64,000 nt of DNA from Pedobacter sp. L105. GTDB lineage: Bacteria; Bacteroidota; Bacteroidia; Sphingobacteriales; Sphingobacteriaceae. Shown in pieces: positions 18,510 through 62,918 of this stretch (the stretch's first letter is position 1; each line of letters begins with the position of its first letter). The translations under genes and the position numbers were made by a program. The stretch covers positions 372,001 to 436,000 of the forward strand of contig NZ_LMUP01000004.1 in NCBI RefSeq assembly GCF_009765875.1, read 5' to 3'. The notes under the pieces were generated by a model. The model saw nothing but the letters and a program-made list of their open reading frames with translations, ran no database searches and was not told the origin of the DNA.

Positions 18510-19142
18510 CTACATGATTTCGTTATAGAAATCCTCATAAGCGGTTTTCATGTCCGGTGCCTGATTGATTGCAGACGAAGCAGCAATACCAAATATGCCT
18601 GTTTCCATCAGTTTTGCTACATCTTCCAGTTTTACCCCGCCAACTGCCAGTACCGGCAGGTCAATTCCTTTTTCTTTTAATATAGAGATGATAGTCTCAT
18701 AACCGGACAATCCTAGTAAAGGTGAATTATTAGGTTTGGTAGTGGTAATACTAAAAGGGCCACAGCCTGCATAGTCAGCTCCTTCAGCAGCCAGTCTGAT
18801 CAAACCTTCAACCGTGTTAGAAGAACCACCAATGGTGATGTCTTCTCCGAGTTGCTCTCTGAGGGCAACAAAGTCGGCATCCATATCTTCAATATGAAAA
18901 CCCTGTATATCTGCTTTTCTGTTCAGGTGGATGTGGTTGGTTACGATAAGGGTAGCTCCCCAATCGTCACAGATTTCCGCAATTGCATGAATATCTTTCA
19001 AAAGGGATTCATCATCTTTGGTTAAACAGCGGTATTGAACCCATTTTGCTCCTGCTTCGCAGGCAATTTGTGCCTGTTCGATGTGAGTATGCTGAGCGAT
19101 ATCGTGTGTAATAAAGTGTAGCTTTTCGATGAATTTTTTCAT
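18510..19142 (-). CDS. thiE: thiamine phosphate synthase family protein, divergent
   Basis: A 210-residue TIM barrel. ThiE joins hydroxymethylpyrimidine diphosphate and thiazole phosphate to make thiamine phosphate. Family motifs seen: TLIVTNHIHL, IGGSSNT, GADYAGCGPFSITTTKPN and LPVLAVGGVKLEDV. Some positions differ from classical ThiE: WVQYRCLTKD replaces the usual QLREK-type segment, and GFHIEDMD replaces HLGQED. It may be the second ThiE/TenI-like type found in Bacteroidota. It follows a TonB receptor gene controlled by a TPP riboswitch, which supports a thiamine role. The function is likely; strict equivalence to ThiE is less sure. Confidence 0.75.
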   Translation of the reverse strand: MKKFIEKLHFITHDIAQHTHIEQAQIACEAGAKWVQYRCLTKDDESLLKDIHAIAEICDDWGATLIVTNHIHLNRKADIQGFHIEDMDADFVALREQLGEDITIGGSSNTVEGLIRLAAEGADYAGCGPFSITTTKPNNSPLLGLSGYETIISILKEKGIDLPVLAVGGVKLEDVAKLMETGIFGIAASSAINQAPDMKTAYEDFYNEIM

Positions 19143-19217
19143 TAGAATATATCTGTTTTATCAGTAGTATTTATAGTTTGTTATTGCCTTCTGGCTGCCT
19201 CCGGCGATTTAATAGTT

Positions 19218-19278
19218 ATGAAGCTATCATAAGCTTATTCATTGCGGTTTGTAAGCTGACTGCTTATGATAATTTCAT
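19218..19278. repeat. structured intergenic repeat, copy A (61 bp)
   Basis: Begins ATGAAGCT and ends TTTCAT. The arms TATCATAAGC and GCTTATGATA pair perfectly inside an ATGAA/TTCAT outer stem, with GTAAGCTG in the loop. Similar elements lie at 39366-39427 and 62858-62918. A TTGCCTTC block 34 bp upstream (19184) is shared with copy B. It lies between thiE and the TonB receptor gene. Confidence 0.7.
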
Positions 19279-39277: not shown

Positions 39278-39365
39278 ATCAAAATATTTTCATTAGGGCA
39301 TTTGCTGGTTTATCGGAAGTGTTTTTTGAATTTCTTCTAGTTGCCTTCGGCCGGCTTTGCTGGTA

Positions 39366-39427
39366 ATGAAGCTTGGATAAGATAGTTATCGGTTTTTTAA
39401 GCTATAATCTTATGCAGATTTCGTCAT
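39366..39427. repeat. structured intergenic repeat, copy B (62 bp)
   Basis: Starts ATGAAGCTTGG and ends TTTCGTCAT. Arms ATAAGAT and ATCTTAT pair, with TTTTTTAAGCT in the loop. Same family as 19218-19278; the TTGCCTTC block lies 25 bp upstream (39341). It sits between panD and the acyl-CoA dehydrogenase gene. Confidence 0.6.
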
Positions 39428-46685: not shown

Positions 46686-46799
46686 TTTTTTAATTATTGT
46701 AAATAATTATCCAAAGAAACAGGGGGCCACATCAAGATGGAACGAGTAAAACAAAACCAGTTACGTCCTATAGCCTTTCTCCCGAAAGCATTTGGATTA

Positions 46800-46960
46800 T
46801 GTTGTCTGGCAGGTCTTCTGACTCGTTCTGCTTTAACGCCTTCCCATCTGCTTAAGCAGACAGTGGCAAAGAATGTTAAAGTATGGATAGAACTTACAGC
46901 AGCGGGAACTGTTCTGGACTTTCACCAGATTCCCTTTTAATCTTAACTGCACCTGAATGC
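46800..46960 (-). ncRNA. cobalamin (B12) riboswitch
   Basis: On the minus strand the conserved blocks appear in order: AAAGGGAATCTGGTGAAAGTCC, in part GGTGAAAGTCC; CAGTTCCCGCTGCTGTAA; GCCACTG; GGGAAGGCG; and GAGTCAGAAGACCTGCC (B12 box region). About 115-275 nt separate it from the permease start, which leaves room for an expression platform. It should turn off the cobalt/TonB genes when B12 is plentiful. Edges are approximate. Confidence 0.93.
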
Positions 46961-47109
46961 AGTAAAAACCAAATAACGCAGTAAACCTAATTAAATTTAT
47001 TGAATTGATTAAAGTAGCTGTGTGATTTTTCTGTTGGAATTTTTCCAAAGGACAATCAACCGTTTTTTGGTGGTAACGGTTGATGTAATGTTATGTCCCA
47101 GAATAATGG

Positions 47110-61931: not shown

Positions 61932-62834
61932 TTATTTTAACAACTTATAGTTTTTATATTCCCCTATTCTCCATCCCGTGATCATTTCAATCCGGTGTAA
62001 CATCATCCTTCTTGGAGAGAGGTCTACCTTATTGGGATTATGTTTAAACACCCAGTCCTGCTTCTTAATCGTTTGCTGCATAGTTGCCGGATGCGGTTCA
62101 TTAAAAGGGGCCAGGATATCAGCTACAGTTTCAAAATCGAAGGTATCATAAGCGGCGAAACGCTCTGCTGTTTTTTCTTCAGACTGGTAATAATTGCTGA
62201 AGCGTTTGGCTTTTCCCAGCAAAAGATCGGGATTTCTGCAATAAGAATAATGAAATATACGGGCATTCAGTAATTTCACACGGAGCTTCCTGCTGTTGGT
62301 TTCGTTCTGGTAGTCGGTTAATGAGGGATAACTCCTAAATCCCTGCGAATCTTTATAAGAATAATAGGTGGGGTCGTTTCTAATGATCCTGATTTCCCGT
62401 CGGTGCCATTTTCGGGTAGTACCAATATGTTTGTAGTCGCCAATAAAGTGGATGAAATTGAAAAGAAAACCTTCTACTTTTTTGTCTTCCAGGTTATCTT
62501 CCATGGCTTTTTTTATTTCAGCAAGGTCATTTTCATGGAAAACCTCGTCCGACTGGATATGAAATGCCCAGTCGCCTGTTACAGCTTTTAGCCCAATGTT
62601 AGCTTGCTGCGCAAAAACTTTCCCTCCTTTAATCAGTTCATCATCCCATTCGGTATCTATAATCCTTATTTTGTCAGACCCAATAGCTACGATGGCCTCA
62701 CGGGTTCCGTCGTCTGATTTGCCAACTACAGCTATAAACTCATCGCATATAGGAAGTATAGATTTAATAGACTCAATCACGGGATATCCGTACTTGAAAC
62801 TATTCCGCATATAAGTGAAGCCGCTTACTTTCAT
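61932..62834 (-). CDS. glycosyltransferase family 2
   Basis: A 300-residue protein. MKVSGFTYMRNSFKYGYPVIES and CDEFIAVVGKSDDGTREAI form the GT2 start; AVTGDWAFHIQSDEVFHEND holds the metal site (QSDE in place of DxD). A later basic segment (KHIGTTRKWHRREIRIIRND) is typical of this subgroup. It lies 57 bp upstream of the MsbA-like exporter gene, so the three minus-strand genes at 58965-62834 may be one unit. Confidence 0.82.
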   Translation of the reverse strand: MKVSGFTYMRNSFKYGYPVIESIKSILPICDEFIAVVGKSDDGTREAIVAIGSDKIRIIDTEWDDELIKGGKVFAQQANIGLKAVTGDWAFHIQSDEVFHENDLAEIKKAMEDNLEDKKVEGFLFNFIHFIGDYKHIGTTRKWHRREIRIIRNDPTYYSYKDSQGFRSYPSLTDYQNETNSRKLRVKLLNARIFHYSYCRNPDLLLGKAKRFSNYYQSEEKTAERFAAYDTFDFETVADILAPFNEPHPATMQQTIKKQDWVFKHNPNKVDLSPRRMMLHRIEMITGWRIGEYKNYKLLK

Positions 62835-62857
62835 GGGTATGTATTTTTTTATCGTTT

Positions 62858-62918
62858 ATGAAGCTTGCATCAGCTTGTTCATCATTTTTTGTAAGCTGTA
62901 AGCTAATGCAGGTTTCAT
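62858..62918. repeat. structured intergenic repeat, copy C (61 bp)
   Basis: ATGAAGCTTGCATCAGCTT opens it and TTTCAT closes it. TGCAT/ATGCA and AGCTT/AAGCT arms pair, with GTAAGCTG in the loop, although the arm sequences differ from copies A and B. It sits between two divergent genes. Confidence 0.68.

What the first reader, a model, noticed from the sequence alone, without database searches (positions are those of the whole stretch)
19218..19278. Family of ~61-bp structured intergenic repeats, three copies in the window
Elements at 19218-19278, 39366-39427 and 62858-62918 all begin ATGAAGCT, end in TTTCAT or TTTCGTCAT, carry an AAGCT motif in the loop and fold into a hairpin. The arms differ between copies yet still pair (TATCATAAGC/GCTTATGATA; ATAAGAT/ATCTTAT; TGCAT/ATGCA plus AGCTT/AAGCT), which is the pattern of compensating change. 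The length is almost constant. They sit between genes of unrelated function. This looks like a REP/BIME-like or RNA-structured family not covered by standard models.
Basis: seen in the sequence. Interest (0 to 1): 0.65.

Follow-up and report, generated by a model that had tools for sequence, protein, structure and literature searches.

The report
Hairpin elements that invade start codons
The three hairpins belong to a large family of roughly 86-base mobile DNA hairpins in Pedobacter and its relatives that mostly insert right at gene start codons reading ATGAAA, leave the gene intact and put a new leader in front of it, usually with a four-codon mini-gene.

Summary
The three copies belong to a palindromic family with 64 candidate places in this genome (probably Pedobacter), found in 127 of 251 sampled genomes of its family and in one sampled genome outside it. 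The 19-bp stem shows compensatory change. It is not in Rfam.

The unit is a ~25-nt spacer plus the 61-nt hairpin, lying directly after a TTTCAT. That TTTCAT is usually the ATGAAA start codon of a gene on the other strand. Orthologous empty sites have one TTTCAT; filled sites have one at each end; occupancy among orthologues is sporadic. So it is a mobile element that lands on start codons, between promoter and gene. The displaced ATGAAA becomes a mini-ORF with a stop exactly at codon 5 in 133 of 160 copies (window copy 1, not copies 2 and 3).

Conserved G·T pairs put the structure on the strand antisense to the gene, against a leader riboswitch. Strict REP membership fails: no GTAG/CGTC foot, no Y1/RAYT match in this genome, no link with Y1 across 251 genomes. 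The enzyme is unknown. I favour single-strand insertion guided by foot ATGAA pairing with TTCAT; that is inferred.

The parts
19137..19142 (+). Copy 1, left TTTCAT (within TTTTTTCAT 19134-19142); its CAT is the start codon of thiE on the - strand
19143..19217 (+). Copy 1, spacer, here 75 nt: standard spacer parts with about 50 extra nt that include a small GC-rich hairpin-like stretch
19218..19278 (+). Copy 1, hairpin ending in the right TTTCAT (19273-19278); in gene sense ATGAAATTATCATAA, stop at codon 5
   Evidence: (69.3 bits)
18510..19142 (-). thiE (thiamine phosphate synthase), the gene whose start codon carries copy 1
39288..39293 (+). Copy 2, left TTTCAT, just after the panD stop codon; no ORF of 60 aa or more starts there, an exception to the start-codon rule
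39294..39365 (+). Copy 2, spacer, 72 nt, with the same kind of extra stretch as copy 1
39366..39427 (+). Copy 2, degenerate hairpin, right end TTTCGTCAT
   Evidence: (54.5 bits for 411366-411424 of contig C23)
62829..62834 (+). Copy 3, left TTTCAT; CAT 62832-62834 is the start codon of the glycosyltransferase gene on the - strand
62835..62857 (+). Copy 3, spacer, 23 nt
62858..62918 (+). Copy 3, hairpin ending in the right TTTCAT (62913-62918); in gene sense codon 5 is TTA, so it lacks the early stop
   Evidence: (82.2 bits)
61932..62834 (-). Family-2 glycosyltransferase-like gene whose start codon carries copy 3

Best explanation
A non-autonomous mobile palindromic element. The unit, written antisense to the gene, is nnGAATATATTTGTTTTTTAATGGTT then ATGAAGC..hairpin..GGTTTCAT. 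It inserts directly 3' of TTTCAT, usually the complement of an ATGAAA start codon, in one orientation. SHOWN by comparison: the insertion point, TTTCAT at both ends against one in empty sites, sporadic occupancy among orthologues, head-to-tail arrays, and a retained promoter-like stretch upstream at bshA. SHOWN in sequence: in gene sense the old ATGAAA lies upstream and mostly meets a stop at codon 5 (MKPA, MKPS), while the gene's own ATGAAA follows an A-rich spacer carried by the element. INFERRED: the hairpin foot ATGAA(G) acts as a guide pairing with target TTCAT on a single strand, as guides do in IS200/IS605 and REP elements, with an enzyme that is not Y1/RAYT; ribosomes loading at the old start stop after four codons and initiate anew at the gene start, so insertion is tolerated and may tune expression.
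For: TTCAT 18-31 nt left of the hairpin in 164 of 193 copies, against 3-18 of 193 in six control windows; 75 of 91 among copies found by R1 only. Of non-coding anchors 119 of 140 are gene starts, against 70 of 158 background TTTCAT sites. Clean empty/filled pair L281/L289, and 7 of 7 relatives empty at C23:1212096. R1 matches upstream of only 4 of 30 bshA and 2 of 30 fabG orthologues. Promoter-like stretch shared by filled and empty bshA leaders. G.T pair 6 in 173 and T.G pair 8 in 174 of 192 copies; among R1-only copies 71 and 73 of 89. Stop at codon 5 in 133 of 160 copies, 59 of 69 among R1-only copies, and in two of the other hairpin types. Copies 95-100% identical over about 95 bp at unrelated sites in G092.
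Against: No enzyme identified. 29 of 193 copies lack the left TTCAT in the expected place (about a dozen because of the extra stretch); 21 of 153 classified anchors are non-coding non-starts and 13 fall in called coding. The direct repeat is longer than TTTCAT in a minority, which pure guide-type insertion does not predict (25 of 104 match at two more bases, 9.6 expected), though array remnants could do it. The terminator site L071 has TTTTTTCAT on one side and TTTTTTAT on the other. C, not A, at -3 in 70% of spacers fits poorly with a strong Bacteroidota start context. Window copy 3 lacks the early stop. No mobility or translation experiment.
Confidence: 0.6

Rival explanations
1. A REP family spread by a RAYT (TnpA-REP) whose gene has since been lost from this genome, for example by a relative of the Bacteroidetes subclass 2.6, described as flanked by atypical structures.
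For: Size, dispersal, arrays, structure on one strand with G.T pairs; PMC6006769 (passages) describes subclass 2.6 genes in Bacteroidetes flanked by atypical structures without the GTAG foot, with copies elsewhere in the genome.
Against: No Y1_Tnp in this genome; presence unrelated over 251 genomes (71 both, 56 element only, 67 Y1 only, 57 neither; p 0.80); 11 of 23 genomes with 8 or more copies have no Y1. Of two partly overlapping sets of Y1/RAYT loci, 1 of 28 (about 1.9 kb away, fetched because of that) and 0 of 30 carry the element. Six RAYT-like genes that I inspected have other repeats around them.
Confidence: 0.15
2. A cis-acting RNA leader (riboswitch-like or protein-binding) of a dispersed regulon.
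For: Fixed place in front of start codons, compensatory changes, promoter-like stretch upstream.
Against: Structure is better on the antisense strand (187 of 194 copies; 84 of 91 R1-only copies); sporadic among orthologues; genes unrelated; arrays.
Confidence: 0.07
3. A retroelement-like unit copied by target-primed reverse transcription from T-rich targets.
For: T at -7 in 119 of 142 anchors, insertion at a terminator T-tract (L071), longer direct repeats in a minority, and a distant copy (L352) with ACACAATGAA on both sides.
Against: 5 of 11 element-rich genomes have no RVT_1 match (one of these, G143, is 87% complete).
Confidence: 0.1
4. No transposition: copies spread by recombination and tandem duplication between similar gene starts.
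For: Arrays share the same bases beside TTTCAT, which suggests that arrays themselves grow by duplication.
Against: In the G092 copies the shared DNA ends after about 95 bp and the flanks are unrelated; insertion with one fixed junction at orthologous sites.
Confidence: 0.05

Closest known systems
REP / BIME elements with RAYT (TnpA-REP) transposases (PMC3733652, PMC6006769: passages seen)
   Same: Short palindromic repeats between genes, many copies, clusters, G.T pairs in stems, structure at one end
   Different: Foot ATGAAG instead of GTAG/CGTC; whole unit ~86 nt with a conserved spacer; sits at start codons; head-to-tail arrays; no RAYT link found
Atypical structures flanking TnpA-REP subclass 2.6 of Bacteroidetes (PMC6006769, passages seen)
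   Same: Bacteroidota, no GTAG foot, copies elsewhere in the genome
IS200/IS605 ends (guide-directed single-strand insertion; passages of PMC6006769)
   Same: Insertion 3' of a short fixed target; a sequence at the hairpin foot is complementary to it (sequence observation; pairing not tested)
   Different: One hairpin only, no gene, guide inside the stem, no Y1 transposase in this genome
MITEs of DDE transposons (recalled)
   Same: Small, no gene, short direct repeats at both ends
   Different: The two ends of the unit do not form terminal inverted repeats; fixed target word
Pedo-repair RNA, RF01715 (table entry in PMC2864571, passage seen)
   Same: Structured motif reported from Pedobacter
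   Different: cmscan gave no match of the elements to it: whole window at gathering cut-off, five loci at E up to 10

Membership tests
REP/BIME (RAYT-associated) | Short palindrome in many intergenic copies | tested here: met
   64 places in this genome; stem counts
REP/BIME (RAYT-associated) | GTAG or CGTC tag at the foot | tested here: not met
   Foot is ATGAAGCT / GGTTTCAT in alignment A4 and R1-only copies
REP/BIME (RAYT-associated) | RAYT / Y1 transposase in the genome or linked to the repeats | tested here: not met
   0 in own genome (the search rings in 5 of 14 control genomes); no association in 251 genomes; loci (1 of 28, 0 of 30); profile A8 0 of 11 (no positive control)
IS200/IS605-type element | Insertion 3' of a fixed short target | tested here: met
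   Empty and filled sites, anchors
IS200/IS605-type element | Y1 (HUH) transposase | tested here: not met
IS200/IS605-type element | Guide-target base pairing used in cleavage | not testable with these tools
   Only the complementarity ATGAA / TTCAT is seen
DDE-type MITE | Terminal inverted repeats | tested here: not met
   By eye only: spacer end and hairpin end are not inverted repeats
Cis-regulatory RNA leader | Structure on the mRNA strand | tested here: not met
   Antisense strand more stable in 187 of 194; G.T polarity
Cis-regulatory RNA leader | Conserved in front of orthologous genes | tested here: not met
   4 of 30 bshA, 2 of 30 fabG
Pedo-repair RNA (RF01715) | Match to the Rfam model | tested here: not met
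Integron attC site | Paired core boxes recombined by an integrase | not tested
   Considered from memory only

The most novel reading that the evidence does not exclude
A mobile element that targets start codons as such and is built to be harmless or useful there: its foot is complementary to the start-codon word, it turns the old start into a minimal ORF with a stop at codon 5, and it carries its own translation-initiation leader. It spreads by an enzyme outside the known Y1/RAYT class and lays a shared translational control on unrelated genes.
Probability: 0.33. Interest if true: 0.86.

Novelty: new variant of a known kind. Interest (0 to 1): 0.68.

Why it matters
Small palindromic repeats are usually seen as sitting anywhere between genes. 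Here a family widespread in Sphingobacteriaceae lies directly in front of start codons, including those of conserved genes (bshA, fabG, thiE), and rebuilds the translation start. That makes it a natural test of how bacteria that lack Shine-Dalgarno sequences start and restart translation, hints at an unidentified insertion enzyme that may choose its target by base pairing, and affects start-site and leader annotation in these genomes.

Tried and rejected
Rfam: nothing on the elements at gathering cut-offs in the window; on five loci at E up to 10 only models far below their cut-offs touch the elements. Y1/RAYT partner: no association. Reverse transcriptase as a needed partner: no match in 5 of 11 element-rich genomes. 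Vehicle: no exact match in viral contigs for two arm types, no match in plasmids at E<=0.001; phage records were not searched. A fixed duplication longer than TTTCAT: only a minority of copies, left open. Generic leader: by eye, leaders of other window genes lack the spacer motif. Longer autonomous copies: blast of 20 loci showed shared stretches of mostly 80-135 bp around the element, apart from one orthologous pair and repeats within loci. Literature: nine searches of the held PMC library ran (three returned no paper); nothing in the listings and passages that I saw describes this family. That is not proof that it is unpublished.

Dropped before counting: six of 28 first pattern hits as chance, by eye, for lack of pairing arms (L003, L004, L008, L009, L013, L028); own-genome places under 33 bits (10 of 64), reverse-strand double hits and identical copies before the set of 194; one copy near a locus end (193 of 194); copies under 50 nt (2 of 194); copies without right TTCAT before the 160; 38 of 142 tandem-like copies before the 104. 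The first alignments had mis-oriented rows and were replaced. 81 of the 194 copies came through a pattern that fixes the outer arms and 22 through one that fixes the outermost letters; counts for the other 91 are, though R1 itself was built from pattern copies.

Full report
CHECK OF THE OBSERVATION. A loose pattern for them occurs three times in the window against 0.43 expected by shuffling. Copies 1 and 3 fold clearly better than shuffles; copy 2 only weakly. Rfam gives nothing on them (five loci with genome copies).

FAMILY. The pattern over the whole genome (6.39 Mb, 26 contigs) gave 28 hits against 1 for the reversed control. I kept 22; with window copy 2 they form alignment A4 of 23 rows. 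A 19-bp stem is paired in 94.7% of cells with 31 two-sided changes; 0 of 500 shuffles reach either. Covariance model R1 gives 80 matches at E<=1 here, 64 places after merging strands. At E<=0.001 it is found in 127 of 251 genomes of the family, in 15 of 25 genera. It was found in 0 of 23 genomes of other families. In a class-wide sample of 295 genomes it is found in 6 at E<=1e-4, one of them (G564) outside the family; that copy has the same layout, gene start included. An exact pattern over the species collection gave 88 stretches. The 80 listed bear the names Pedobacter, Parapedobacter, Sphingobacterium, Olivibacter, Daejeonella, Hufsiella, Paradesertivirga or unnamed Sphingobacteriales or Sphingobacteriaceae. 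That all these genera are Sphingobacteriaceae is recalled; only Pedobacter was looked up. The window's genus is probably Pedobacter: G006, of the same genus, has a contig of exactly the length of CP060294.1, Pedobacter sp. PAMC26386. This rests on length only.

ANATOMY. The flanks show one layout: TTTCAT, then mostly 23-27 nt (nnGAATATATTTGTTTTTTAATGGTT), then ATGAAGC..hairpin..GGTTTCAT. Of 193 distinct copies, 164 have TTCAT at 18-31 nt to the left; six control windows give 3, 9, 10, 17, 17 and 18. Some copies, window copies 1 and 2 among them, carry about 50 nt more inside the spacer. Head-to-tail arrays share the TTTCAT: three units of 85 bp at C24:106518, two at C10:141533, and a seven-unit array of shorter hairpins in L285. 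In genome G092, copies 95-100% identical over about 95 bp have unrelated flanks.

TARGET. The left TTTCAT is usually the complement of an ATGAAA that starts a gene on the other strand. By one rule used for elements and background alike, 119 of 140 non-coding anchors are starts (13 more fall in called coding), against 70 of 158 background sites. For TTTTTCAT it is 70 of 78 against 31 of 48. The background was the window and 20 stretches of relatives, elements not masked. So much of the preference follows from the word itself, with an excess at starts beyond it. Window copy 1 (thiE) and copy 3 (glycosyltransferase) obey the rule. Copy 2 lies just after panD and does not. Two copies lie at terminator-like T-tracts (L071; one in L264).

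MOBILITY. Syntenic stretches of relatives were compared with own copies. At C23:1212096 the seven relatives shown lack the element and have a single TTTTTCAT or TTCTTCAT. At C23:1161788, five of seven relatives are empty, L289 has a copy (40.8 bits) and L285 has the array of short hairpins. The cleanest pair is L281 and L289: empty AATGTTTTTTTCAT then TTCAGATTT; filled, the same two stretches with the unit, ending in TTTCAT, between them. At bshA the filled leaders keep the conserved stretch AATTGCAATTGTTTAACA..TACTTTGC of the empty ones, with the element between it and the gene. That this stretch is a promoter is recalled from Bacteroidota consensus, not tested. R1 matches lie upstream of 4 of 30 bshA and 2 of 30 fabG orthologues (a weak hit in L212 lies downstream of fabG and is not counted). 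FabG and BshA are named by NCBIfam models over their cut-offs.

STRAND. Stem pairs 6 and 8 are G.T and T.G in 173 and 174 of 192 copies. These are A.C mismatches on the gene's strand. In copies not found through a pattern they are so in 71 and 73 of 89. The antisense strand folds better in 187 of 194 copies, mean -25.5 against -16.6 kcal/mol. The selected fold is thus on single-stranded antisense DNA or RNA, not on the leader of the mRNA.

THE OLD START. In gene sense the far TTTCAT mostly reads ATG AAA CCN NNN TNA. A stop stands exactly at codon 5 in 133 of 160 copies, in the main arm types (TGCAT 74 of 87, ATCAT 43 of 47, TCGAT 7 of 7). Of 141 copies with TNA the free base is A or G in 129. 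The distance to the gene's ATG is spread over the three frames (53, 49, 41). Of the window copies only copy 1 has it; copy 3 reads TTA there, and copy 2 has a stop one codon later (read). Own-genome copies found only by R1 are weaker here (10 of 16). At the fabG site a hairpin family with different arms (L196, L198) and the own copy (L193) also have it; L209 does not. The L285 array has a stop at codon 7 in all seven units. Copies are related by descent, so this is suggestive and not a formal test. The spacer is A-rich with A at -6 in 81% but C at -3 in 70% of 155 copies. PMC6847099 (abstract and passages) reports A at -3 and -6 as favourable in Flavobacterium johnsoniae, so the leader fits only in part.

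HOW IT MAY WORK. The data fix where and in which orientation it inserts. The foot ATGAA(G) is complementary to the target TTCAT; PMC6006769 (passages) describes guide-target interactions in IS200/IS605 and guide sequences in REPs. I infer a comparable single-strand process. The expected enzyme was not found: no Y1_Tnp in this genome, no association across 251 genomes, no match to a profile of eight family RAYT-like proteins in 11 element-rich genomes, a search without positive control. Y1/RAYT loci do not carry the element, with one exception about 1.9 kb away that was fetched because of it (the two sets overlap). No RVT_1 match in 5 of 11 element-rich genomes. The direct repeat beyond TTTCAT is in excess in a minority of copies. 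It may be array remnants or a hint of another mechanism. The effect on the gene (early stop, then renewed initiation) is inferred from sequence only.

VERDICT. A real, widespread, mobile hairpin family that mostly targets start codons: REP-like in kind but failing the defining foot and partner of REPs. A new variant of a known kind, with an unexplained enzyme.

Noticed in passing
window 46791-46988 (-): Cobalamin riboswitch, 109.4 bits.
   Followed up: no
window 19143-19217 and 39294-39365; also L020, L069, L070, L075, L084, L133: About 50 nt of extra sequence inside the spacer, often with a GCCTTC..TTCGGCGG-like stretch: perhaps a second small repeat family nested in the first.
   Followed up: partly
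L285:9400-9860: Seven-unit array of 36-nt hairpins with the same foot ATGAAGCTTGC..GCAGGTTTCAT at the gene start where other relatives have the long element or nothing.
   Followed up: partly
L196, L198, L204 (fabG leaders): A sister hairpin family with different arms but the same layout in front of ATGAAA.
   Followed up: partly
L327, L328, L329, L330, L335, L336: RAYT-like genes of the family with their own, different repeats at both sides (e.g. GTCTTAGCG..CGCTAAGAC).
   Followed up: no
L211, L215, L217, L222 (fabG leaders): Another dispersed repeat, TCTTCGACAGGCTCAGACTGACA, in front of fabG in several genomes.
   Followed up: no
L096:1589-1697 and L094: Hairpins whose loop or arm holds a further repeat, AAGAACTCGCAA..GGTTC.
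   Followed up: no
L140:6765-6801 (-): DUF805b RNA match above its gathering score in a Daejeonella MAG.
   Followed up: no
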